This document shows positions 7,463-51,290 of a stretch of DNA of 64,000 nucleotides, one piece after another (positions within the stretch are counted from its first letter, which is position 1; each line of letters opens with the position of its first letter). A program made the translations under genes and the position numbers. Below the pieces are notes generated by a model. That model did no database searches. It worked only from the letters and a program-made list of their open reading frames with translations, and had not been told where the DNA came from. The stretch covers positions 3,166,000 to 3,229,999 of the forward strand of contig NW_027460346.1 of NCBI RefSeq assembly GCF_050947875.1. Reading direction: 5' to 3'. Source of the DNA: Dermacentor variabilis. Its lineage: Eukaryota; Arthropoda; Arachnida; Ixodida; Ixodidae.

Positions 7463-7464
<2 letters not shown>

Positions 7465-7484
7465 TTTCGACTCTTGACGCCATT

Positions 7485-8135
7485 ATCAAAGAATGTCGCC
7501 GCTTCGAACAAGCTAAAGAGCCGTCGTATTACGCGCCACATCCTGTGGCTGCCCAATACCGCTGCTACGTCGACTTGTCAGGACCATCCCCGCCCGCCAG
7601 TCACATGTCACAACGTTACTCTCGTCTTTCGCCGCGAGCTCGTGGCCGCTTATTCGCCATCCTACTCCGCGACGTGAACTTATCCACCACCAGCCACGAC
7701 TGCTGTAATCCAAGCCGTTGTCCAACAAGAATATGAAAACATGGATCTCAACTCCGTGTGCGCATCGATCCCCGAACCCAGCGTACAGCGCTCCTTTCGC
7801 AGCGCTCCTCGACCTCGACAACCAATTTCCGCTACATCATGAAACCCGCCTGAATGGTGCACCTCGGACAACAAGCCCATCTGTTGCTATTGGTGCCGCA
7901 TTGGCCACATAGACTGATGGCCAACTCCATCTCCAACATACAACAGTGCTTATTTCCACAGCTCTGCACCTACTGCCCTTATGTTTCTTGCCATGATCTT
8001 ACTGCCGCTTACGCCCTTGCTCTGAATCTTCGCTACGGCCGATCACCGTCACCCCGACGTCGTCAGTCTCTTTCGCCTCAGCCCCGTCGCTTCTTGTCGC
8101 CGTCTATGCCCCTCCACACCCCTCCGGAAAACTAG
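7485..8135 (+). pseudogene. gag remnant of the 7.5-11.2 kb Ty3/gypsy element
   Basis: Fragments of the capsid C-terminus occur in changing frames from 7485. A nucleocapsid zinc-knuckle remnant with residues CYWCRIGH sits at about 7881-7910 and is followed immediately by a stop. It lacks the final cysteine of the CX2CX4HX4C motif. A Pro/Arg/Ser-rich linker follows to 8135. No intact gag frame remains. Confidence 0.6.
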
Positions 8136-8221
8136 GAACCGCAGCTTCCGGAGGTGAAGCTGTGATGTCGACCTTGACCTCAAATCATCTGCTTACTTTG
8201 CCCACGAACCAGAACCTTCGT

Positions 8222-8314
8222 GAAGTTGACGTTGAAGACGCTGCTGTCACTGCGCTGATCGACACAGGTGCACACTTCTCCATTATGAGCGCTGCCTTCC
8301 GATGGCGACTTAAA
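8222..8314 (+). pseudogene. Retroelement aspartic protease remnant
   Basis: The frame reads ALIDTGAHFSIMSAA, with the catalytic DTGA at 8261-8272. A stop follows at 8312-8314. The DTG triad is intact, but the domain is truncated downstream. Confidence 0.75.
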
Positions 8315-8969
8315 TAATTTCTCTTAGTCCTGCAACCACATGCGTCGTCCGCGTTGCAGATGGCGGTACGGTTCCCGTCATCGTTATGCGTACAGCACGC
8401 GTAAGCCTCGCCGCCGCCACACTGCTGTCCTTTTTACTGTGATTGCCCATTGCCCGCACGCCCTCATTCTGGGCCTCGATTTTCTCGCAGCGCAATCGGC
8501 TCTTATTGACTGCTCCGCCCACGACCTTCCGTCTCGAACTGCCTACTCTTTCGGATACTTGTGATATAAACCCCAGCCGCTTAACTTCCACCAGCTTCGC
8601 TCGACTGTCACGCGAATCATAATCATATATTGAACTGCCGTCTTCCCCGCCCGTTCCCGATGAAGAGTATCTCATCACTCCGCAGTCCGACATTCCACTG
8701 CAGTATAATGTCACCTCACACAGTTCTATCACGACCAGCCGGACTTCCGTTCCTGTCGTCGACTTCGTACAAACCAAGCAAATTGTGCCTCAAGAGCTTG
8801 CCTCGCCCAACTTGAGCCTGTAGATAACCATCACGTGGCAGCTTTCTCGCCCGACGCTTCGTCTGAGCCTACCAGGTTTCCAAAATCTGCTTCTTGTGCT
8901 GATCCGAAGATTAAGAAAATGATCGCGACAGAGCTTTTGCCCGCATAAGCCGAATGCCGCTACCATAAT

Positions 8970-9870
8970 TTGTTTTCCTACAGCGATGTTTTCTACTTTG
9001 ACAATCGCCCCTTGGGCCAGGCGTTTGCTGTCAAGCATTGCATTAATACTGGCGATGCTGCTCCTACTCTCCGTAGACCATATCGCGTATCTCTGTCGGA
9101 ACACCAGGTAACTCAAACGCAACTTAACGAGATGTTCGATATAAATATCATTGAGCCTCCTTAAGTACGTGGGCGGCACCGGTAGTGTTGGTTAAGAAGA
9201 ATAACGGGTCATGGCGCTTCTGTGTGGGTTACCGCCATCTGAACATGACTAAGAATACGTGTACTCGCTGCCACGAATCGACGACGCCCTTGACTGCCTC
9301 TACGGTTCCAGCTACTTCTCTTTTGACCTTCAATCTGGATACTGGCTGATCGCCGTCGAAGATATGGACAGAGAAAAGACCGAATTTATAACACTCGATG
9401 GTCTTACCAGTTTAATGTTATGAACTTTGGATTACGTAACGCGCCGGCCACTTTTGAGCGTATAATGGACTCCTTCCTTCAGTGTTTCTAATGGCCCACA
9501 TGCATGTGCTACCTTGATGAGGTTATTGTCGTTTGACCGAATTCTCACACGCTGAACCTATCTCTGCCATACTTGACGTCTTTCATAAGGACAGGGTGCA
9601 ACTCAACTCATCGAAATGCCGTTTCGGCCGCTTCCAAATTACGATTTTGGGTCATCTTGTCGACGCTTTTGGAGTATAACCTGGACCAGACAAAACTCGT
9701 GCCGTCCGAGACTTACCGGTTCTGAAGTCAGCCACAGACGCTCGCAGTTTTTTTTGGGCTGTGTTCTTACTTCCACCACTTTGTTCATGATTTTGCCGCC
9801 ATTGCTCGGCCTCTCACTGACCTTTTGAAGAAAGGAGTACCCGTCTCATGGGACTACCACAATCTGCAGA
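8970..9870 (+). pseudogene. Reverse transcriptase remnant (Ty3/gypsy)
   Basis: The start of the RT is readable at 8970-9164, ending INIIEPP and a stop. After frameshifts the motifs NNGSWRFCVGYRHLN, then FDLQSGYWLIAVEDMD, follow. The catalytic box reads YLDE at 9510-9521 instead of YLDD, so the second metal-binding aspartate is lost. At least three frame changes separate the blocks. Non-functional. Confidence 0.85.
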
Positions 9871-9944
9871 CTTCTCTCATCTCATCACGCATTTGACATG
9901 ACCACCGATCCTCGCCCACTTCGACCCTAATTCCCCAACATAAC

Positions 9945-10020
9945 TGCGTACGGATGTCAGGGGCCATGGTGTCGGCGCTGTCCTAGCGCAGCGTAGCGTG
10001 GCCAAGATCGTGTTATCGCT
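9945..10020 (+). pseudogene. RNase H start, truncated
   Basis: The sequence reads TDVRGHGVGAVLAQ, the degenerate first motif of Ty3/gypsy RNase H (normally TDASxxGxGAVLxQ). It breaks off within about 15 codons and joins integrase sequence directly, so most of RNase H and the integrase N-terminus were deleted. Confidence 0.65.
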
Positions 10021-11002
10021 GTGCGACGTTATATGCGACGCTACGTCGCAGCTTGTGAGCCATGTCAACGACGCAAGAAGCCATCCCTGTTTCCCGCTGG
10101 GTACCTGCGGCCACTTGAAATCTCGGCAGGGCCATTCCATCGTGTCGGCTTAGACCTACTGAGCCCTTTTCCGGCATCTGCGTCGGGAAACAAGTCGATT
10201 GTTGTCACTATTGAATACGCGACCAGATACACCATCCCGCGCGCTCTCCCAAGCAGCTGCGCTACGAATGTGGCAGATTTCCTGCTACATAACGTCATTT
10301 TGATGCATGGAGCTCCACCTCAAATACTCACACACCGAGGCGGTACGTTCTTGTTCAAGGTCATTTATGACATCATGCGCGCCTGCTCTATCCAGCATCA
10401 GTTTACGACCTCCTACCATCCACAAACCAACGTCCTGACCGAGCAATTGAACCGTACCCTTGCAGATATGCTGGCAAAATACGTTTCAGCCGATCACCGC
10501 AATTGGGACCTCGCTCTACCGTGCATCACCTTCGCCAATAATTATTTTCGCCTTGACACTGCCGGCTATTCCCCGTTCTACCTCTTGTATGGCCGTGAAC
10601 CAACGCTTCCAGTCGACACTTAGCCCACCATCGATAACGACCTCGACAAGTGATTATGCGCGTGATGCCATCGCTCGCGCTGACCACGCTCGACAACTTG
10701 CACGCGCTCGCTTATCAATGTCGCAAGAGAAACAGAATCGTCGCCACGACCTCTGTCACCGTCAAGTTCTCTTTTCGCCGGGTGCCCTAATGCTCCTTTG
10801 GACGCCTTCTCATCGAGTAGGCCTTTGCGAGAAATTCCTGCCTTTTTACAAAGGCCCATATCGCATGTTTCTCCAAATTACTGATATCGTCGACGAAATC
10901 GGTCCCGCCAACCTTGCAACGTCCTCCGCTCCGACCACCAGTGATATCGTCCACGTCTCCAGGTTCAAACCCTGCAACTCTCCGCTTGCCAAATATACCT
11001 AG
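10021..11002 (+). pseudogene. Integrase remnant (Ty3/gypsy)
   Basis: A frame at 10021-10623 begins within the zinc-binding region (CEPCQ) and continues through the catalytic core (VGLDLLSPF, then TSYHPQTNVLTEQLNRT). The second catalytic aspartate is replaced: the usual SDxG reads THRG. After a frameshift near 10620 the C-terminal domain continues to 11002, with GALMLLWTP and FKPCN resembling the GPxRV-to-FKPxY region. Inactive. Confidence 0.85.
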
Positions 11003-11037
11003 CGGCACCGAGACGGCGCTTTTGCCACCGGGGGTTG

Positions 11038-11197
11038 TGTTGCGATACAAGAAGCGCTTATGAGACATGCGCAAAGGAAGACGAAGACGAGCATCTGGGC
11101 TTGGCACGAGCTGGTTACCATCTTGTTCTCTGGCTGCGCTGCTCTTGTAAATACAGTGTAAATAGTCTCCTTTGTCTGTGTCTTTCCGCACGTAACA
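11038..11197 (+). mobile_element. Candidate 3' LTR of degenerate Ty3/gypsy
   Basis: A 160-bp segment begins TGTTGCG and ends CGTAACA (TG...CA). It follows a G-rich tract (CCACCGGGGGT) that could be the polypurine tract, 35 bp after the integrase stop. No second copy is present to prove the boundaries. Confidence 0.6.
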
Positions 11198-11934: not shown

Positions 11935-14742
11935 ATGAACCTGGCAACGTTTAACGCTAGAACGTTATCTAGTGAGGCGAGTCTAGCAGTGCTATTGGAG
12001 GAATTAGAGGGCAGTAAATGGGATATAATAGGGCTCAGTGAAGTTAGGAGGCCGAAAGAAGCATATACAGTGCTAAATAGCGGGCACGTCCTGTGCTACC
12101 GGGGCTTAGCGGATAGAACTAGGAGTCGGATTCCTGATTAATAAGAATATAGCTGGTAACATACAGGAATTCTATAGCATTAACGAGAGGGTGGCAGGTC
12201 TTGTTGTGAAACTTAATAAGAGGTACAAAATGAAGATTGTACAGGTCTACGCCCCTACATCCAGTCATGATGACCAGGAAGTCGAAAGCTTCTATGAAGA
12301 CGTGGAATCGGCGGTGGGGAGAGTGAAAACTAAATACACTATACTAATGGGCGACTTTAATGCCAAGGTAGGCAAGAAGCAGGCTGGAGACAAGGCAGTG
12401 GGGGAATATGGCATAGGCACTAGGAATAGCAGGGGAGAGTTATTAGTAGAGTTTGCGGAACAAAATAATATGAGGATAATGAATACCTTCTTCCGCAAGC
12501 GGGATTACCCAAAGTGGACGTGGAGGAGCCCGAACGGCGAGACTAGAAATGAAATAGACTTCATACTCTGCGCTAACCCTGGCATCATACAAGATGTGGA
12601 CGTGCTCGGCAAGGTGCGCTGCAGTGACCACAGGATGGTAAGAACTCGAATTAGCCTAGACCTGAGGAGGGAACGGAAGAAACTGGTACATAAGAAGCCG
12701 ATCAATGAGTTAGCGGTAAGAGGGAAAATAGAGGAATTCCAGATCAAGCTACAGAACAGGCATTCAGCTTTAACTCAGGAAGATGACCTTAGTGTTGAAG
12801 CAATGAACGACAATCTTGTGGGCATCATTAAGGAGTGTGCAATGGAAGTCGGTGGTAACTCCGTTAGGCAGGATACCAGCAAACTATCGCAGGAGACGAA
12901 AGATCTGATCAAGAAACGCCAATGTATGAAAGCATCTAACCCTACAGCTAGAATAGAACTGGCAGAACTTTCGAAGTTAATCAACAAGCGTAAGACAGCT
13001 GACATAAGGAAGTATAATATGGATAGAATTGAACATGCTCTCAGGAGCGGAGGAAGCCTAAAAACAGTGAAGAAGAAACTAGGAATTGGCAAGAATCAGA
13101 TGTATGCGTTAAGAGACAAAGCCGGCAATATCATTACTAATATGGATGAGATAGTTCAAGTGGCTGAGGAGTTCTATAGAGATTTATACAGTACCAGTGG
13201 CACCCACGACGATAATGGAAGAGAAAATAGTCTAGAGAAATTCGAAATCCCGAAGGTAACGCCGGAAAAAGTAAAGAAAGCCTTAGGAGATATGCAAAGG
13301 GGGAAGGCAGCTGGGGAGGATCAGGTAGCAGCAGATTTGTTGAAGGATGGTCGACAGATTGTTCTAGAGAAACTGGCCACCCTGTATACGCAATGCCTCA
13401 TGACCTCGAGCGTACCGGAATCTTGGAAGAACGCTAACATAATCCTAATCCATAAGAAAGGGGACGCCAAAGACTTGAAAAATTATAGACCGATCAGCTT
13501 ACTGTCCGTTGCCTACTAAGTATTTACTAAGGTAATTGCAAATAGAATCAGGAACACCTTAGACTTCTGTCAACCAAAGGACCAGGCAGGATTCCGTAAA
13601 GGCTACTCAACAATAGACCATATTCACACTATCAATCAAGTGACAGAGAAATGTGCAGAATATAAGCAACCGTTGTATATAGCTTTCATTGATTACGAGA
13701 AAGCGTTTGATTCAGTCGAAACCTCAGCAGTCATGGAGGCATTACGGAATCAGGGTGTAGATGAGCCATATGTAAAAATACTGGAAGATATCTATAGCGG
13801 CTCCACAGCCACCATAGTCCTCCATAAAGCAAGCAACAAAATCCCAATAACGAAAGGCGTCAGGCAGGGAGATACGATATCTCCAATGCTATTCACAGCG
13901 TGTGTTTACAGGAGGTATTCAGAGACTTGGATTGGGAAGAATTGGGGATAAAAGTTAATGGAGAATACCTTAGTAACATGCGATTCGCTGATGATATTGC
14001 CTTGCTTAGTAACTCAGGGGACCAATTGCAATGCATGCTCACTGACCTGGAGAGGCAAAGCAGAAGAGTGGGTCTAAAAATTAATATGCAGAAAACTAAA
14101 GTAATGCTTAACAGTCTCGGGAGAGAACAGCAATTTACAATAGGCAGCGAGGCACTGGAAGTCGTAAGGGAATACATCTACTTAGGGCAGGTAATGACGG
14201 CGGATCCGGATCATGAGACGGAAATAATCAGAAGAATAAGAATGGGCTGGAGTGCGTTTGGCAGGCATTCCCAAATCATGAACAGTAGGTTGCCGTTATC
14301 CCTCAAGAGAAAAGTATATAGTAGCTGTGTCTTACCAGTACTCACCTACGGGGCAGAAACCTGGAGGCTTACGAAAAGGGTTCTACACAAATTGAGGACG
14401 AAACAACGAGCTATGGAAAGAAGAATGATAGGTGTAACGTTAAGGGATAAGAAAAGAGCAGATTGGGCGAGGGAAGAAACGCGAGTTAATGACATCTTAG
14501 TTGAAATCAAGAAAAAGAAATGGGGGGCATGGGCAGGACATGTAATGAGGAGGGAAGATAACCGATGGTCATTAAGGGTTACGGACTGGATCCCAAGGGA
14601 AGGGAAGCGTAGCAGGGGACGGCAGAAAGTCAGGTGGGCGGATGAGATTAAGAAGTTTGCAGGGACGGCATGGCCACAATTAGTACATGACCGGGGTTGT
14701 TGGAGAAGTATGGGAGAGGCCTTTGCCCTGCAGTGGGCGTAA
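11935..14742 (+). pseudogene. LINE endonuclease-reverse transcriptase, 3 lesions
   Basis: The enzyme would nick target DNA and prime reverse transcription from the nick. An ATG at 11935 opens the APE-type endonuclease (MNLATFNARTLSSEA). A frame change near 12118-12130 is best explained by one extra base. The next segment, 12191-13519, carries [18 protein letters not shown] and the RT N-terminus with [12 protein letters not shown] at 13517-13519 interrupts the frame. RT continues with FIDYEKAFDSV and GVRQGDTISPMLF. A 2-base insertion near 13901-13906 shifts the frame. The last segment, 13900-14742, carries the catalytic FADDIALL and the RTE-type C-terminus. Both catalytic centres look intact; only frame integrity is lost. 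Confidence 0.9.
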
Positions 14743-44603: not shown

Positions 44604-44607
44604 CCCG

Positions 44608-45309
44608 TGTTGGAATCGCACCGCTGGCACGAGTTGTTGGGAACTCGGCGCTGACGCCCGTTGTTGCACCTGGGTCGCAAGCCCCAAGGGTAGCGTTGGC
44701 CTGGCGGCCTGGGGTACAACTGGAAGCATCCGAAGGTCCCGGCAAAGCATGAGTCGACTGGTAACAACAAAACAACTTGTTTATTCTAACATCGCAAAGA
44801 GTTGGCGGTCAGGTCGACCGAAGTAGAGAGACGGGAGTGCACGTTAATCAACAGAAGAAATCGGAGCCTCTTCTTGGCGTCCGGGGGCAGCTGCTTTTAT
44901 ACTCTCGCAGTTGAGGGCAAGAAGGAACCCCTCTATAGACGAGCACGTGACTGTGCCGCTCGGGCACAATGGGATAAGGTGGCGCAGCCGTTGTGCTGGC
45001 GCCACTGGGGCACAATGGGAGGAGAAGGTGGCTCACACGTCGTGTCGGCGCCGGTCAGACCCCTCGCTTCACAGTTGGGGGGGAGTTCCTCTCCCCGGCT
45101 GCCGCGCTTCGACAAGCGTGGGCACCAACATGCACATACACACACACACGCACATGAAGACACGTGGCATTGGAACATGCCTGGACGCGCTTGGCAGGGA
45201 GGCGTAGCGGCGGCGCCGAACGGGCCAAAATGTCTCCCGCTTTGAACGAAGCCCCGGCGTCCGTTGCATCCGCGCCGGCTTTACCGCGCGTCGTAGGCGA
45301 AACGTAACA
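44608..45309 (-). repeat. 3' LTR (702 bp)
   Basis: Same length as the 5' LTR and nearly identical. On the minus strand it has TATAAAA at 44895-44901 and AATAAA at 44780-44785, so promoter, R and U5 regions can be placed. A CA/CG-rich block lies at about 45128-45155. The end nearest 44608 holds a sequence like the 3' end of tRNA-Leu (see findings). Confidence 0.93.
44780..44785 (-). terminator. Polyadenylation signal AATAAA in 3' LTR
   Basis: AATAAA on the minus strand, 110 bp downstream of the LTR TATA box. The equivalent hexamer in the 5' LTR is at 50757-50762. Confidence 0.6.
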
Positions 45310-45330
45310 GACCGCCCCGCCGGGGAAAGG
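45310..45330 (-). other. Polypurine tract candidate
   Basis: On the minus strand the run TTTCCCCGGCGGGGCGGTC immediately precedes the 3' LTR start TGTTACG. It is G-rich but not a pure purine tract, so plus-strand priming here is likely but not certain. Confidence 0.45.
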
Positions 45331-45790
45331 AGATCCCGATGGTCAGGGGACTGCATCCGCTGTCCGAAGGGATGTCGCTCGATGATGCTCATATCCGAAG
45401 TCGGGCGTCCCTCGACGTTTCTTGAGCGCAGCGCACAGAGAAGGCCTCGTTCTCTCGTTCAGGTTCGCACAGGACACTGCAAAGTGACTTCGGGAGAGTT
45501 CACATTTTTGTTCTCGTTCCCGGCAAGCGTTAGAACTACGCTGAAACTCAACCGCTCAGTCAGCAAGCACGGCACAACCCTCACTAAGCCCTGCCAGGCT
45601 CTTTCCCCTTTTATACCACTGCCTAGTTCCTTACAGTAGTCTAGCAGCATTCAGAACGCGTCCACAAATTGGAAAATTGCACTAGAAAGAACATCATCAC
45701 TTTGAAACACTACACAAAAGCAATATGTTAAAAATCCTGCCTCAGGAAAAAAAACATCAGTAACAAACAATTTTGAGGCTGATTCCTACG
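45331..45790. other. Retrotransposon 3' internal non-coding region
   Basis: About 460 bp between the gag-pol stop and the 3' LTR. No envelope-like frame or membrane segment is seen. A poly-A-like run lies near 45748. Confidence 0.6.
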
Positions 45791-48700
45791 TTAGGGGCTT
45801 CGACTTAAGCCATCGGCGTTACCGTTGAGACTCCCCTTTTTGTAACGCACCTCAAAGGAATATTGTTGCAAAGCGAGGCTCCAGCGCAGGAGGCGGCCAT
45901 TTTTGGGAGAGATGGTCTGCAGCCATTGGAGAGGGCAGTGATCCGTCTCAATGATAAACCTCGAGCCGGCTAGATAGCATGACAATTTCTGAACGGCCCA
46001 CACGAGACACGCACACTCTTTCTCGGTGGCGCTATACGCCTGCTCACGACTGGTCAGCTTACGACTAGCATACAGGACGGGGTGTTCTACTTCTCCATTT
46101 TCCCGTTGGCACAGTACAACGCCCATGCCTCGCTCACTAGCATCGCACTGAACAACGAACCCTTTTGTATAGTCTGGCGATCGTAGCACAGGCTGGCTTG
46201 TTAGGGCACTCTTTAGGGCGCTAAAAGCTCTTTCCTTTGTCTCGTCCCATACGACTGTTTGGGGCTCTGTTTTTCTTAGAGCATCCGTCAGGGGAGCCGC
46301 GATATCAGAGTACCTGGGGATGTACCTCTGATAGTAGCAGGCGACACCTAAGAACGACCGAATATCGGTCTTCGTGCGCGGTTGCGGGAAGTCTCGCACA
46401 GCGGCCACCTTTATTTCAGAGGGGCGGCGACGACCCCGACCAATCACGTGACCGAGGTAGACAACCTCGGCCTGTGCTAACTGGCACTTAGGAGCCTTGA
46501 CTGTCAAGCCCGCTTCGCGCAGGCGGGTTAGCACTGCCCGCAAGTGTGCCATATGCTCAGACCAGGAGGCGGAGAATATCGCTACGTCGTCTAAATACGG
46601 TAAAGCGAATTCTTGCTGTCCCCGCAACACTTTATCCATGAGGCTTGAAAAGCAGTATGGCGCGTTCTTCAAACCAAAACTCAACACTTTAGGACGGAAT
46701 GTTCCCATTGGTGAAATGAACGCCGCATACCTACTAGCCTCTTCTGTAAGTGGAACCTGCCAATAACCCCTGACAAGATCTAGGGTGGAAATAAACTGAG
46801 CGCTACTAACTTTCTCAAGGCGCTCCTCGATGTTAGGGATCGGATAAATTTGATCCTTAGTGATGGAATTAAGCCTGCGGTAGTCGACGCAAGGACGAGG
46901 TTCCTTGCCCGGTACCTCAACTAAAATCAAAGGGGAGGTATAATCACTCTCACCTGCCTCAATAACACCGAGCTGTAGCATTTTCTTTACCTCAGCCTCC
47001 ATAATATCGCTCTGGCGGGGTGACACCCGGTACGCCTTGGATCGTACTGGCTCTGGGGAGGTAAGTTCTATGTCATGAGTAAGGACAGAAGTCCTACCAG
47101 GCCTCTCAGAGAACAGACCTTGAAACTCTTGTAAGAGCTGGTGTAGTTCGGTTTTCTGCTCAGGCGACAGCGGTGCTTTACTGATAAGGTCACTAATGAC
47201 TTGACCGGTGTCTTCCCTGTTCGTCACTGAGCCTAGTCCCGGAAGCTCGACCGGAAGCTCTTCAGGAACGTTTACCATCATGCACACTACTGCTTCCCTT
47301 TGTTTATAGGGTTTGAGCAGATTACAGTGGTAAACTTGCTGTGCTTTCCGCTTTCCTGGCAGACTCACCACGTAGTTAACGTCCGACAGTTTCTGAACAA
47401 TTCGTGCTGGGCCCTCCCACTGCACGTCTAGTTTGTTGTTTAGCGATGTGCGCAATATCATGACCTCATCGCCCACCTCAAAACGACGGGCCCTGGCGGT
47501 CCGATCATAATAAACCTTGGCCCTCTGCTGGGCCTTTGCCATTGCTTCACCTGACAACTCCTGTGCCCTTCTTAAGCGTTCGAGGAGCTTAAGCACGTAC
47601 TCCACCACGACTGGGTCGTCGCCCCTGCCTTCCCACGATTCTCGAAGCATGCGAAACGGAGATCGCAGCGAGCGACCGTACACCAGCTCAGCTGGCGAAA
47701 ACCCCGTAGCCGCATGCGGCGCGGTCCGTAATGCAAACATCACCCCAGGCAGACACAGCTCCGAGTCAGTTTGATGTTCAAAACACAATGCTCTCAACAC
47801 GCGCTTCATGACGGAGTGGAGCTTCTCAACGGAATTCGACTGTGGGTGGTACACTGGGCTGTGTAACAGCTTTACCCCACACCTTTCGAGAAAAGTTGTC
47901 GTCAAAGCGCTAGTAAACACTGTGCCCTGATCTGATTGGATTTCCGCAGGAAAACCAACTCGCGCAAATATGGACAGTAGTGCATTGACTATCTCAACTG
48001 AGCTGAGTTCTTTAAGCGGCACCGCTTCAGGGAACGTTGTCGCTGGGCAGATCACAGTCAAAATGTGTCTGTACCCCGTGGCTGTTACCGGCAGAGGTCC
48101 CACTGTATCAATAACGAGCCGTCTAAAAGGCTCCGTAATGATAGGTACCAATCTCAACGGCGCCCTCGATTTGTCCCCTGGTTTGCCCACCCGCTGACAG
48201 GTGTCACATGTCCTCACGAAATGGTCTGCGTCCCGAAAACACCCTGGCCAATAGTACTCTTGCAAGAGACGGTCCTTAGTTTTCTTAACTCCTAGGTGTC
48301 CGGACCACGAACCCCCATGCGACAAGCGCAACAGATCCTGACGATAGCATTGAGGAACGATCAGCTGATCGAACTCCACTCCTCTGCGGTCTAGATACTT
48401 CCGGTACAGGACTCCACCTCTTTCCACAAAACGCGCATTTTTCCTGGCGATACCTTCCTTGACAATGCAGCGTATGTTTTCTAGGCTGCCATCCTTTTTT
48501 TGCTCGGCTATCAAAGCCGACCGGCTGACTTTTAGCAACCTATCAAGTCCGTCTGACGTAGGCGCGATGAGCAAATCTGCAGATAGCTCTTCTAACTTTC
48601 CCTTATCGGGCATTTCCTCTCCAGTATCTGGCGCCTTCAACGCTACAGGCTCAATTTTATTCAGTTCGGGCGTGCTCTGAATATCGGCTTGCTGCGCCTC

Positions 48701-50269
48701 TGACCCTTTTTCATTGTTTGATAACGTCGGCCCCGCAACTACCGCCTTTGCAGCGAGCTCCCGAACCTTCGATCTGGTTAAGGCCTGAACGCTAGCCTCA
48801 CCAAACAAAAGCCCCTTCTCGCGCAGGAGGTGATCGGACCTGTTCGAAAATAGGTACGGGTACTGGGGGGGCAGCATAGATGACACTGCGGCCTCCGTCT
48901 CAAGCGCTCCGAATGGTCCTTCAATAAGCACTTTTGCTACGGGCAGACACACGCTATGAGCTTCCACGGCTTGCTTGATCCATGCGCACTCGCCCGTGAA
49001 CATATGGGGTTCTACGTAAGAGGGGTGAACTACATCCATTGTAGCTGCGGAATCGCGAAGCACTCGGCACTCTTTCCCGTTCACGAGGAGGTCTCGCATG
49101 TAAGGCTCGACAAGCTTCATGTTCTCGTCAGTGCTGCATATTGACAAAAACACAACTTTTGGTGTTGTTTCCGGACACTGCGCCGAAAAGTGACCCGGCT
49201 TCTGGCACGTATAACAAACGCGCGCTTGCCTCGTCTCGAACCGCTTTCTGCGTTCGGCTTTGGCTGCCGCCGTCTCCTTAGGTTCGGTCGCACTGCTTTC
49301 ACTCGCATCCGCACTACGTGTGTTCCCCTTTGCTCTCATGGGTGTGAACTTTGGCCTCTCAAACTTGGAGCCAAATTCACCCTTTTGACCGTCCTTAGCT
49401 CCGCGAGCCCGACGCGTCACAAACTCCTCGGCTAGCTCGGCGGCTTTAGCCACTGTACTAACGTCTGGCCTATCCAAGACCCAGTACCGCACGTTCTCCG
49501 GTAACCGACTATAAAACTGTTCTAGCCCGAAACACTGCAGAACTTTCTCGTGGTCACCAAACGCTTTCTCTTCTTTGAGCCACTCCTGCATGTTTGACAT
49601 AAGCCTGTACGCAAACTCTGTATATGACTCACTTTTGCCTTTCTCATTTTCCCGAAACTTCCGACGGAACGCCTCCGCTGACAGCCTGTACTTCTTTAGC
49701 AGACTCGATTTCACTTTGTCGAAATCCTCTGCCTCCTCTCTATTCAAGCGAGCGACTACGTCGGCCGCCTCGCCGGGTAACAAAGTGAGCAAGCGCTGTG
49801 GCCACGTTTCCCGAGAGAACCCCTGCTTCTCGCACGTTCGCTCAAAGTTAACCAGGAACAAACCAATGTCCTCTCCAAGCTTAAACGGCCGCATCAGGTC
49901 AGTCATTTTGAACAATACGCGTTCTCCTGCACCGTGTGCCTGACTTCCATTACGAGCGCGTTCCATCTCTACCTCGAGACGCTTCATTTCCAAAGCGTGT
50001 TGACGGTCGCGCTCTTGTTGCTCTCGCTCTTTCTGTTCTTTACGTTCGCGCTCTTCTTTCTCTTTCTGTTCTTTTCGTTCACGCTCCTGTCTTTTTGCCG
50101 TCTCCCTCTCCTCAATGGTCTCAAGGCATTCCGACAGCTCGTCATCCTCAGCTTCTAACTCAAGAATAGCCCTTAGCAGTTCTGGTTTTCTGAGTTTGTC
50201 TGAGACATCCAGACCCAACTCTCTTGCAAGCTCCAGCAATTTCGGTTTGCGCAACGACTTCAAATCCAT
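45791..50269 (-). CDS. gag-pol polyprotein, PR-IN-RT-RH order
   Basis: 1492 residues in one frame. Residues 1-38: SAP/Rho-N-like helices (MDLKSLRKPKLLELARELGL). 40-110: Glu/Lys/Arg-rich coiled coil. About 115-300: retrotransposon gag. 352-365: zinc knuckle CYTCQKPGHFSAQC. 405-415: protease with DSA at 406-408 in place of DTG. About 645-695: integrase zinc finger with His651, His658, Cys688 and Cys691. Integrase core Asp721, Asp780, Glu815. About 890-960: integrase C-terminal region. About 1080-1260: RT with Asp1164 and YLDD at 1225-1228. 1371-1490: RNase H with Asp1376, Glu1416, Asp1443 and Asp1486. The protein packages, copies and integrates the element. No internal stop or frameshift; all three polymerase/nuclease centres keep their key acidic residues. 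Integrase clearly precedes RT. Confidence 0.95.
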   Translation of the reverse strand: MDLKSLRKPKLLELARELGLDVSDKLRKPELLRAILELEAEDDELSECLETIEERETAKRQERERKEQKEKEERERKEQKEREQQERDRQHALEMKRLEVEMERARNGSQAHGAGERVLFKMTDLMRPFKLGEDIGLFLVNFERTCEKQGFSRETWPQRLLTLLPGEAADVVARLNREEAEDFDKVKSSLLKKYRLSAEAFRRKFRENEKGKSESYTEFAYRLMSNMQEWLKEEKAFGDHEKVLQCFGLEQFYSRLPENVRYWVLDRPDVSTVAKAAELAEEFVTRRARGAKDGQKGEFGSKFERPKFTPMRAKGNTRSADASESSATEPKETAAAKAERRKRFETRQARVCYTCQKPGHFSAQCPETTPKVVFLSICSTDENMKLVEPYMRDLLVNGKECRVLRDSAATMDVVHPSYVEPHMFTGECAWIKQAVEAHSVCLPVAKVLIEGPFGALETEAAVSSMLPPQYPYLFSNRSDHLLREKGLLFGEASVQALTRSKVRELAAKAVVAGPTLSNNEKGSEAQQADIQSTPELNKIEPVALKAPDTGEEMPDKGKLEELSADLLIAPTSDGLDRLLKVSRSALIAEQKKDGSLENIRCIVKEGIARKNARFVERGGVLYRKYLDRRGVEFDQLIVPQCYRQDLLRLSHGGSWSGHLGVKKTKDRLLQEYYWPGCFRDADHFVRTCDTCQRVGKPGDKSRAPLRLVPIITEPFRRLVIDTVGPLPVTATGYRHILTVICPATTFPEAVPLKELSSVEIVNALLSIFARVGFPAEIQSDQGTVFTSALTTTFLERCGVKLLHSPVYHPQSNSVEKLHSVMKRVLRALCFEHQTDSELCLPGVMFALRTAPHAATGFSPAELVYGRSLRSPFRMLRESWEGRGDDPVVVEYVLKLLERLRRAQELSGEAMAKAQQRAKVYYDRTARARRFEVGDEVMILRTSLNNKLDVQWEGPARIVQKLSDVNYVVSLPGKRKAQQVYHCNLLKPYKQREAVVCMMVNVPEELPVELPGLGSVTNREDTGQVISDLISKAPLSPEQKTELHQLLQEFQGLFSERPGRTSVLTHDIELTSPEPVRSKAYRVSPRQSDIMEAEVKKMLQLGVIEAGESDYTSPLILVEVPGKEPRPCVDYRRLNSITKDQIYPIPNIEERLEKVSSAQFISTLDLVRGYWQVPLTEEASRYAAFISPMGTFRPKVLSFGLKNAPYCFSSLMDKVLRGQQEFALPYLDDVAIFSASWSEHMAHLRAVLTRLREAGLTVKAPKCQLAQAEVVYLGHVIGRGRRRPSEIKVAAVRDFPQPRTKTDIRSFLGVACYYQRYIPRYSDIAAPLTDALRKTEPQTVVWDETKERAFSALKSALTSQPVLRSPDYTKGFVVQCDASERGMGVVLCQRENGEVEHPVLYASRKLTSREQAYSATEKECACLVWAVQKLSCYLAGSRFIIETDHCPLQWLQTISPKNGRLLRWSLALQQYSFEVRYKKGSLNGNADGLSRSP

Positions 50270-50560
50270 GGCTGCTCTGAATGCTGCTTTCTCTACTGCC
50301 TATTATTGTCTTGCCGCAAACTAACCCGGCAGCAACGACAACCACAATTACCAGCTCTGTTTCTGACACTAACAAAAGCCTGGCAAAGCTCAGAAGAAGA
50401 AAGTCCCGCACTCACCAAACCTCGCAGCCAAGAATTCAGCGCAGTCGTTCCGCTGCAGGCAACCAGTCATCACACAGGGCTCGTTGCACTGCTCCCGGAT
50501 GGTCGTTGAGCTGCTCAGCATACAGTCAACTGCATATCTTCGCTGCTGGCCTCCGTTGTC
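50270..50560 (-). other. 5' leader of the LTR retrotransposon
   Basis: About 290 bp between the primer-binding region and the gag start codon. This would hold any packaging signal; none can be recognised. Confidence 0.6.
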
Positions 50561-50582
50561 GCGATCTCACCGCTGGCAGACA
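50561..50582 (-). promoter_or_regulatory. Candidate primer-binding site (tRNA-Leu-like)
   Basis: The plus strand reads GATCTCACCGCTGGCAGACA, close to the 3' end of eukaryotic tRNA-Leu as I remember it (AATCCCACCGCTGCCACCA), directly inside the 5' LTR. The eight-base core CACCGCTG matches exactly. The outer bases do not match CCA perfectly, so priming efficiency is doubtful. Confidence 0.5.
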
Positions 50583-50584
50583 GT

Positions 50585-51286
50585 TGTTGCCTTCGCACCG
50601 CTGGCACGAGTTGTTGGGAACTCGGCGCTGACGCCCGTTGTTGCACCTGGGTCGCAAGCCCCAAGGGTAGCGTTGGCCTGGCGGCCTGGGGTACAACTGG
50701 AAGCATCCGAAGGTCCCGGCAAAGTATGAGTCGACTGGTAACAACAAAACAACTTGTTTATTCTAACATCGCAAAGAGTTGGCGGTCAGGTCGACCGAAG
50801 TAGAGAGACGGGAGTGCACGTTAATCAACAGAAGAAATCGGAGCCTCTTCTTGGCGTCCGGGGGCAGCTGCTTTTATACTCTCGCAGTTGAGGGCAAGAA
50901 GGAACCCCTCTATAGACGAGCACGTGACTGTGCCACTCGGGCACAATGGGATAAGGTGGCGCAGCCGTCGTGCCGGCGCCGCTGGTGCACAATGGGAGGA
51001 TAAGGTGGCTCACACGTCGTGTCGGCGCCGGTCAGACCCCCTCGCTTCACAGTTGGGGGGAGCTCCTCTCCCCGGCTGCCGCGCTTCGACAAGCGTGGGC
51101 ACCAACATGCACATACACACACACACGCACATGAAGACACGTGGCATTGGAACATGCCTGGACGCGCTTGGCAGGGAGGCGTAGCGGCGGCGCCGAACGG
51201 GCCAAAATGTCTGCCGCTTTGAACGAAGCCCCGGCGTCCGTTGCATCCGCGCCGGCTTTACCGCGCGTCGTAGGCGAAACGTAACA
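50585..51286 (-). repeat. 5' LTR (702 bp)
   Basis: Pairs with 44608-45309. It begins TGTTACGTTTCGCCTACGAC on the minus strand. TATAAAA lies at 50872-50878 and would drive the genomic transcript toward lower coordinates. A cap site about 25-30 bp downstream would be expected. Confidence 0.93.
50872..50878 (-). promoter_or_regulatory. TATA box of the 5' LTR
   Basis: GAGTATAAAAGCAGCTGCC on the minus strand, conserved in both LTRs. Confidence 0.65.
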
Positions 51287-51290
51287 CCCG

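What the first reader, a model, noticed from the sequence alone, without database searches (positions are those of the whole stretch)
45791..50269. Intact Ty3/gypsy-type retrotransposon with integrase upstream of reverse transcriptase
In one uninterrupted 1492-codon minus-strand frame the integrase zinc finger and DDE core (residues about 645-820, nucleotides about 48340-47810) come before RT (YLDD at residues 1225-1228, nucleotides 46586-46597) and RNase H. Ty3/gypsy elements normally end with integrase; IN before RT is the Ty1/copia order. The RT and RNase H motifs are nevertheless gypsy-like. The Gmr1-type group, which I recall as described from deuterostomes, shows this arrangement. An apparently intact arthropod member would extend or re-root that group, or represent convergent rearrangement. 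The window also holds an ordinary PR-RT-RH-IN gypsy element (7463-11197) for contrast.
Basis: partly seen in the sequence, partly recalled or inferred. Interest (0 to 1): 0.9.

Follow-up and report, generated by a model that had tools for sequence, protein, structure and literature searches.

The report
Tick Gmr1-type retrotransposon, integrase before RT
This is a structurally complete, probably recent copy of a jumping gene (LTR retrotransposon) in what is most likely a tick genome, belonging to an already known group whose enzymes stand in an unusual order, with relatives in several ticks and spiders.

Summary
A 1492-codon minus-strand ORF (45791-50269) encodes Gag (SCAN, zinc knuckle), protease, gypsy-type integrase, then RT and RNase H. 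It lies between two 702-bp LTRs (44608-45309, 50585-51286; 689 matches, 12 substitutions, 2 gaps) with a 4-bp target duplication. Of 120 listed relatives, 118 match in both IN and RT and 117 have IN first; named hosts are ticks, spiders, a beetle, frogs, a turtle, fishes, an urchin, a crinoid, an amphioxus. RT-RH and IN trees agree on one IN-first group with one arthropod-holding subgroup; one contaminant row (L001) is placed differently. This speaks against artefact, chimera and, within a limited sample, convergence. The group is the Gmr1 clade, reported outside deuterostomes since 2013 (crustaceans, PMC3587641) and 2021 (annelid, PMC8220671), so that claim is not new. I found no paper joining Gmr1 with ticks or spiders in the held library. 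A protease triad D-x-A instead of D-S/T-G, seen only on the tick and beetle sides, is a small oddity. New member of a known kind; modest interest.

The parts
44608..51286 (-). whole LTR retrotransposon (5' end at 51286, 3' end at 44608)
   Evidence: LTR pair, TG...CA ends, flanking 4-bp repeat
50585..51286 (-). 5' LTR, 702 bp, TGTTAC...CAACA
   Evidence: Aligned to the 3' LTR: 689 matches, 6 transitions, 6 transversions, 2 gap columns, K2P 0.017
44608..45309 (-). 3' LTR, 702 bp
51287..51290 (.). target-site duplication, upstream copy (CGGG on the element strand)
   Evidence: read
44604..44607 (.). target-site duplication, downstream copy (CGGG on the element strand)
   Evidence: read
50560..50584 (-). 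place where the tRNA primer-binding site should lie; no TGG-type site next to the LTR
   Evidence: sequence; primer not identified
45310..45330 (-). place of the polypurine tract; only a G-rich stretch ending two bases before the LTR
   Evidence: sequence
45791..50269 (-). single Gag-PR-IN-RT-RH open reading frame, 1492 aa, stop included
50144..50266 (-). Rho_N (SAP-like) match at the Gag N terminus, residues 2-42, below Pfam's cut-off
   Evidence: E 3.3e-4; also in Haemaphysalis P0003
49409..49675 (-). SCAN (capsid C-terminal-like) domain of Gag, residues 199-287
   Evidence: Pfam PF02023, E 4.1e-14
49169..49222 (-). CCHC zinc knuckle, residues 350-367
   Evidence: Pfam PF00098, E 1.1e-5
48752..49153 (-). 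retropepsin-like protease region, residues 373-506; active-site triad D406-S-A
   Evidence: profile match to retropepsins, relatives match Pfam proteases, AlphaFold model mean pLDDT 84.8 with retropepsin hits
48185..48358 (-). integrase H2C2 zinc-binding domain, residues 638-695
   Evidence: Pfam PF17921, E 1.4e-17
47825..48136 (-). integrase catalytic core, residues 712-815; D721, D780, E815
   Evidence: Pfam rve; motif positions; all three conserved in 82 of 82 aligned rows, window included
47303..47443 (-). integrase C-terminal SH3-like / p58_C domain, residues 943-989
   Evidence: Pfam PF22938 above cut-off, PF24626 below it
46442..46906 (-). reverse transcriptase, residues 1122-1276, YLDD at 46586-46597
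   Evidence: Pfam RVT_1, E 6.8e-29; best PDB match of the RT-RH segment Ty3 RT 4ol8, E 6.6e-69
45860..46249 (-). RNase H, residues 1341-1470
   Evidence: Pfam RT_RNaseH E 1.2e-35 and RT_RNaseH_2 E 4.6e-34

Best explanation
It is a structurally complete, relatively recent insertion of an LTR retrotransposon of the Gmr1 clade of Ty3/gypsy elements, most likely in a tick. Inferred cycle: the 5' LTR drives one transcript; one polyprotein Gag-PR-IN-RT-RH is made without a frameshift; the retropepsin-like protease cuts it; SCAN-containing Gag forms the particle; RT-RH copies the RNA; the integrase, lying between protease and RT, inserts the DNA with a 4-bp target duplication. The IN-first order arose once, in an ancestor of this clade, from the ordinary gypsy order, and IN and RT have been inherited together since. 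Shown here: anatomy, LTRs, 4-bp flanking repeat, conserved catalytic residues, the same order in relatives, trees that agree on the main groups. Inferred: transcription, processing, mobility, the single relocation event.
For: Domain order and open frame; LTRs and flanking repeat. IN first in 117 of the 118 listed relatives that match in both IN and RT (120 listed of 1327 found). IN triad and RT Asp pair in 82 of 82 aligned rows. IN matches gypsy-type Pfam models and, in the PDB, foamy-virus and Ty3 integrases; RT-RH best hit is Ty3. IN-first rows on one side of a branch: RT-RH 58 rows (SH-aLRT 96) and 29 rows (bootstrap/SH-aLRT 100/99); IN 58 rows (98) and 29 rows (89/96). The 17-row arthropod-holding subclade: 100/100 in RT-RH, 100/99 in IN; nine of these rows are named as ticks, beetle or spiders, one is the window, seven have no host name. 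SCAN above Pfam's cut-off in the window, tick P0003, beetle P0052, frog P0086, amphioxus P0091 and MAG contig L001.
Against: No tRNA primer-binding site or strong polypurine tract was identified. The two LTRs differ by three adjacent bases close to their 3' end. The protease triad is DSA, and the window's own protease region has no Pfam protease match. SCAN: turtle P0096 is just below cut-off (24.3 against 27 bits), spider P0061 has no match, and 0 of the 17 listed rows named as spiders carry the accession. The IN support for one IN-first origin is only 89/96, and one long conventional row (P0234) sits next to the group there. L001 is sister to all other IN-first rows in the RT-RH tree (97/85) but sister to the arthropod-holding subclade in the IN tree (94/92), a disagreement. 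The deuterostome rows are not a supported clade (RT-RH: one clade in 17% of bootstrap trees; IN: 71/40). No transcript, no other DNA copy and no sequence labelled Gmr1 could be examined.
Confidence: 0.95

Rival explanations
1. Chimera: a gypsy element whose integrase was replaced or moved by recombination with another lineage, so that IN and RT have different histories.
For: The order is that of Ty1/copia elements. In the reduced IN tree one conventional row (P0234) lies next to the group (85/71). One outlying row, L001, changes place between the RT-RH and IN trees.
Against: The integrase has gypsy-type H2C2 and p58_C domains and matches foamy-virus and Ty3 integrases. RT-RH and IN trees give the same IN-first group and the same 17-row subgroup holding the window.
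Confidence: 0.02
2. Independent (convergent) rearrangement in arthropods, separate from the deuterostome Gmr1 elements.
For: The arthropod-holding rows form a distinct, well separated subclade. The conventional references come from one pseudoscorpion plus Ty3, so an RT-first sister of the arthropod branch could have been missed.
Against: In all four trees the IN-first rows lie on one side of a single branch. A SCAN-type Gag is shared by tick, beetle, frog and amphioxus members.
Confidence: 0.03
3. Assembly artefact or accidental fusion of two neighbouring elements.
For: Fused gene models of neighbouring elements seem to exist: eight Cordylochernes proteins looked IN-before-RT to my script; I took those for fusions and dropped them without a further test.
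Against: One frame of 1492 codons between matched LTRs with a flanking repeat. The same order in 117 listed relatives from many records.
Confidence: 0.005

Closest known systems
Gmr1 clade of Ty3/gypsy LTR retrotransposons (Gmr1 of Gadus morhua; Goodwin and Poulter 2002 recalled, not read; clade described in PMC8220671, PMC6238403 and PMC3587641, passages seen)
   Same: Integrase upstream of RT; SCAN-type Gag (PMC3424704 passage: the vertebrate SCAN domain derives from a Gmr1-like Gag); gypsy-type RT, RNase H and integrase; LTRs.
   Different: Host is probably a tick; belongs to a separate subclade; protease triad DSA rather than DSG/DTG. No sequence labelled Gmr1 was available for a direct comparison.
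Gmr1-like elements of decapod crustaceans (GyRex4, Gychoro2, GyMaja1, GyLiva4; PMC3587641, passages seen)
   Same: Arthropod elements related to the same clade by that paper's RT/RH tree.
   Different: In the passages seen GyRex4 is an RT/RH piece and GyRex5 an integrase piece, and the order is taken from a similar fish element; here the full element is in one frame. Their sequences were not compared with this one.
Unnamed tick and spider polyproteins, e.g. A. americanum V5799_014060 (P0001), H. longicornis LOC144174347 (P0003), I. scapularis LOC121048362 (P0012)
   Same: Same domain order; P0001 is 96% identical over 92% of the searched region and 93.6% over 1430 aligned positions.
   Different: P0001 stops 69 residues before the window protein's end; no listed row is named Gmr1.
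Squirrel and Toxo, new chelicerate Ty3/gypsy clades of Ixodes scapularis (PMC4748124, passages seen)
   Same: Tick gypsy lineages with TG...CA LTRs and 4-bp duplications.
   Different: Described with two ORFs and a GPY/F integrase; IN-first order is not mentioned in the passages seen. Whether either is this lineage could not be checked.

Membership tests
Gmr1 clade (Ty3/gypsy) | Integrase lies upstream of RT in pol | tested here: met
   Pfam positions in the window ORF; 117 of 118 listed relatives matching in both domains
Gmr1 clade (Ty3/gypsy) | RT-RNase H groups with deuterostome IN-first elements and not with ordinary gypsy elements | tested here: met
   Bootstrap/SH-aLRT 100/99 for 29 IN-first rows against 15 conventional rows; conventional rows from one pseudoscorpion plus Ty3
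Gmr1 clade (Ty3/gypsy) | Integrase has the same history as RT | tested here: met
   Same split in the IN tree, 89/96 with 44 rows and SH-aLRT 98 with 81 rows; row L001 is placed differently by the two domains
Gmr1 clade (Ty3/gypsy) | Groups with the Gmr1 element of cod itself | not tested
   No row carrying that name was seen in the listings; deuterostome rows stand in for it
Gmr1 clade (Ty3/gypsy) | SCAN-type domain in Gag | tested here: met
   Pfam SCAN 52.6 bits against cut-off 27
LTR retrotransposon, complete copy | Two LTRs with TG...CA ends and a short target duplication | tested here: met
   empty site not available
LTR retrotransposon, complete copy | tRNA primer-binding site next to the 5' LTR | tested here: inconclusive
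   No TGG-type site next to the LTR; a likeness to tRNA-Leu is only recalled; no tRNA gene in the window and no tick tRNAs at hand
LTR retrotransposon, complete copy | Aspartic protease of retropepsin type | tested here: met
   Profile of 15 sequences against the PDB, best E 0.003 over about 31 positions round the motif; model matches XMRV protease, Foldseek E 6.1e-7; but the triad is DSA and the window segment alone has no Pfam protease hit
Ty1/copia | Copia-type integrase and RT | tested here: not met
   Pol domains match gypsy-type Pfam models; PDB matches are Ty3 and retroviral or pararetroviral proteins

The most novel reading that the evidence does not exclude
The tick and beetle branch of the Gmr1 clade runs on a retropepsin whose near-universal D-S/T-G active-site triad has become D-S-A and still works, alongside D-S/T-G relatives in the same branch. 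This would be a natural series for asking what the glycine is for, in an arthropod lineage that has kept the IN-first order since it parted from the deuterostome members.
Probability: 0.4. Interest if true: 0.4.

Novelty: new member of a known kind. Interest (0 to 1): 0.3.

Why it matters
It makes it very unlikely that the odd gene order is an accident or a chimera: it is the mark of one lineage with members in five named tick species and several spiders. It gives a complete arthropod member with LTRs for a clade described, in the papers seen, from deuterostomes, crustacean fragments and an annelid. It places a SCAN-type Gag, the source of the vertebrate SCAN transcription-factor domain, in tick and beetle elements. 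The DSA protease variant is a small testable oddity. None of this overturns current classification.

Tried and rejected
Copia membership was rejected on Pfam and PDB matches. Chimera and convergence were judged unlikely on the trees. Rfam and tRNA scans of the window gave 0 matches. A tRNA-Leu primer was considered from memory and left open. Viral contigs gave no relatives in two scans; genome contigs gave one, in a record titled as a Heimdallarchaeota MAG (L001), which I take for a eukaryotic contaminant without further test. Whether the Ixodes 'Squirrel' or 'Toxo' clades are this lineage could not be found out. For P0046, which lacks the integrase, a spliced-out integrase was considered and judged unlikely: the window copy has an 8-bp direct repeat at both edges and no GT inside that repeat.

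Rows dropped before counts. The large trees used 57 IN-first representatives (window included) and 22 conventional ones after clustering, with L001 and Ty3 added (81 rows); P0080 was dropped by me as a suspected fused model without test. The reduced trees used 44 of those 81 rows, leaving out 29 IN-first rows and 8 conventional ones, five of the eight being long branches. The groups 'arthropod' and 'deuterostome', and the 'sides', were drawn after seeing the first trees: 7 of 17 and 3 of 11 rows carry no host name and were placed by tree position. The protease and active-site counts used 82 rows (the window and the listed polyproteins over 1330 residues, P0112 left out).
Full report
Observation. 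The minus-strand frame 45791-50269 is open for 1492 codons.

Boundaries. Direct repeats flank the frame. They are LTRs of 702 bp at 44608-45309 and 50585-51286, with TG...CA ends, 689 matches, 12 substitutions and 2 gap columns (K2P 0.017). The flanks carry the same four bases, CGGG on the element strand, at 51287-51290 and 44604-44607. No mutation rate was used, so 'recent' is a relative statement. A clear tRNA primer-binding site was not found, and the polypurine tract is only a G-rich stretch.

Protease. No Pfam protease model matches the window's region, but relatives' regions do (at E up to 1: Asp_protease_2 in 10 and gag-asp_proteas in 9 of the 15 members scanned). A profile of the 15 finds retropepsins in the PDB, best E 0.003 over a short stretch round the motif. 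A model made from the 15 (mean pLDDT 84.8) matches retropepsins, first XMRV protease, E 6.1e-7, TM-score 0.54 by the model's length. The triad is D-S-A in the window. By nearest representative, D-x-A occurs in 24 of 39 tick-side rows (23 DSA, 1 DCA; window included) and 4 of 5 beetle-side rows (3 DSA, 1 DTA), in 0 of 21 spider-side and 0 of 17 deuterostome-side rows; of the last, one has a gap there and one reads DSC. These sides rest on tree position, since many rows have no host name.

Relatives. The search with residues 600-1492 scored 7979 candidates and found 1327 proteins, 120 of them listed. Named hosts include the ticks Amblyomma americanum, Haemaphysalis longicornis, Ixodes scapularis, Ornithodoros turicata and Rhipicephalus microplus, several spiders, the beetle Onthophagus taurus, frogs, a sea turtle, fishes, a sea urchin, a crinoid and an amphioxus. 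Of the 120, 118 match in both IN and RT; 117 have IN first, and one, P0112 from the pseudoscorpion Cordylochernes, has the ordinary order. The other two, P0046 and P0101, lack a match in IN and in RT respectively. The list is ranked by likeness to this element, so it does not estimate how frequent the order is. By my count of that listing, 62 of 120 rows carry the SCAN accession: 13 of the 20 named as ticks (several of the other seven are short gene models) and 0 of the 17 named as spiders.

Trees. Conventional RT-RH-IN units were cut from the 120 rows listed by a second search, all from Cordylochernes: 22 representatives plus Ty3. With 81 rows, the 58 IN-first rows fall on one side of a branch in RT-RH (SH-aLRT 96) and in IN (98). 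With 44 rows and a careful search, support is 100/99 for RT-RH and 89/96 for IN. Seventeen rows that include the window and the nine rows named as ticks, beetle or spiders form one subclade in both (100/100 and 100/99); the other seven have no host name. Rooted on Ty3, both trees put the IN-first clade among conventional lineages (supports 96/91 and 98/88), so the ordinary order looks ancestral and the change derived once. Results that do not fit neatly: L001 is sister to all other IN-first rows in RT-RH (97/85) but to the 17-row subclade in IN (94/92); the deuterostome rows are not a supported clade in either tree; conventional row P0234 stands next to the IN-first clade in the reduced IN tree (85/71); the beetle joins the tick side in RT-RH (86/92) but is unresolved in IN. 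Limits: one host plus Ty3 for the conventional set, some long rows, and no row labelled Gmr1. The deuterostome rows stand for the Gmr1 clade because of their order and SCAN Gag.

Literature. PMC8220671 and PMC6238403 (passages) state that the Gmr1 clade has the integrase upstream of RT. PMC3587641 (passages) calls four decapod elements the first Gmr1-like elements in protostomes. PMC8220671 adds an annelid lineage; PMC8556966 (passages) did not find the clade in its own annelid survey but lists Gmr1 among five clades present in several phyla. PMC3424704 (passages) says that the vertebrate SCAN domain derives from a Gmr1-like Gag. PMC4131045 (passages) reports Gmr1-like copies and transcripts in frogs. 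I found no paper joining Gmr1 with ticks or spiders in the held library: Gmr1 with tick, 0 papers; Gmr1 with gypsy and spider, only the crustacean paper; Gmr1 with arthropod, clade and LTR retrotransposon, four papers, none of whose titles names ticks or spiders; a broad mixed search had no Gmr1 in the 25 papers shown of 1,688. Subscription papers are mostly not held; Goodwin and Poulter 2002 is recalled only, and Emerson and Thomas 2011 was not held (seen only as a cited reference).

Verdict. The claimed surprise, a Gmr1-type element outside deuterostomes, was already in print. What may be new is a complete tick member, the tick and spider subclade, SCAN Gag in tick and beetle elements, and the DSA protease variant.

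Noticed in passing
49040-49060 (-): Protease active-site triad is D-S-A; in the aligned set D-x-A occurs only on the tick and beetle sides (24 of 39 and 4 of 5), in 0 of 21 spider-side and 0 of 17 deuterostome-side rows.
   Followed up: partly
P0046 (Amblyomma americanum) against window residues 566 and 1003: A relative 98% identical in RT-RH lacks the whole integrase in frame. In the window copy an 8-bp direct repeat lies at both edges, 443 codons apart, which suggests a deletion between short repeats.
   Followed up: partly
50144-50266 (-): Rho_N (SAP-like) match at the start of Gag, also in the Haemaphysalis relative P0003 but not listed (E up to 0.01) for the beetle, spider, frog, amphioxus or turtle member scanned.
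   Followed up: no
50568-50604; 44613-44615 and 50590-50592: The LTR 3' end and the stretch just after the 5' LTR share CCAGCGGTG (element strand), and the two LTRs differ by three adjacent bases beside it; possibly a trace of an unusual primer or of imprecise priming.
   Followed up: no
7997-10620 (+): Broken conventional gypsy element: weak protease, RT and integrase pieces in the ordinary order, not in one frame.
   Followed up: partly
12110-14742 (+): Non-LTR retrotransposon pieces with endonuclease and RT domains in separate frames.
   Followed up: no
L001 (record titled Candidatus Heimdallarchaeota MAG) and P0083 (named Nitrososphaeraceae MAG): Gmr1-type polyproteins in archaeal MAG records, one on a 6.8-kb contig; most likely eukaryotic contamination of the bins.
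   Followed up: partly
P0052 and P0102 (Onthophagus taurus): The only named insect among the 120 listed relatives; P0052 joins the tick side in RT-RH (86/92) and is unresolved in IN, so patchy retention or horizontal transfer is possible.
   Followed up: no
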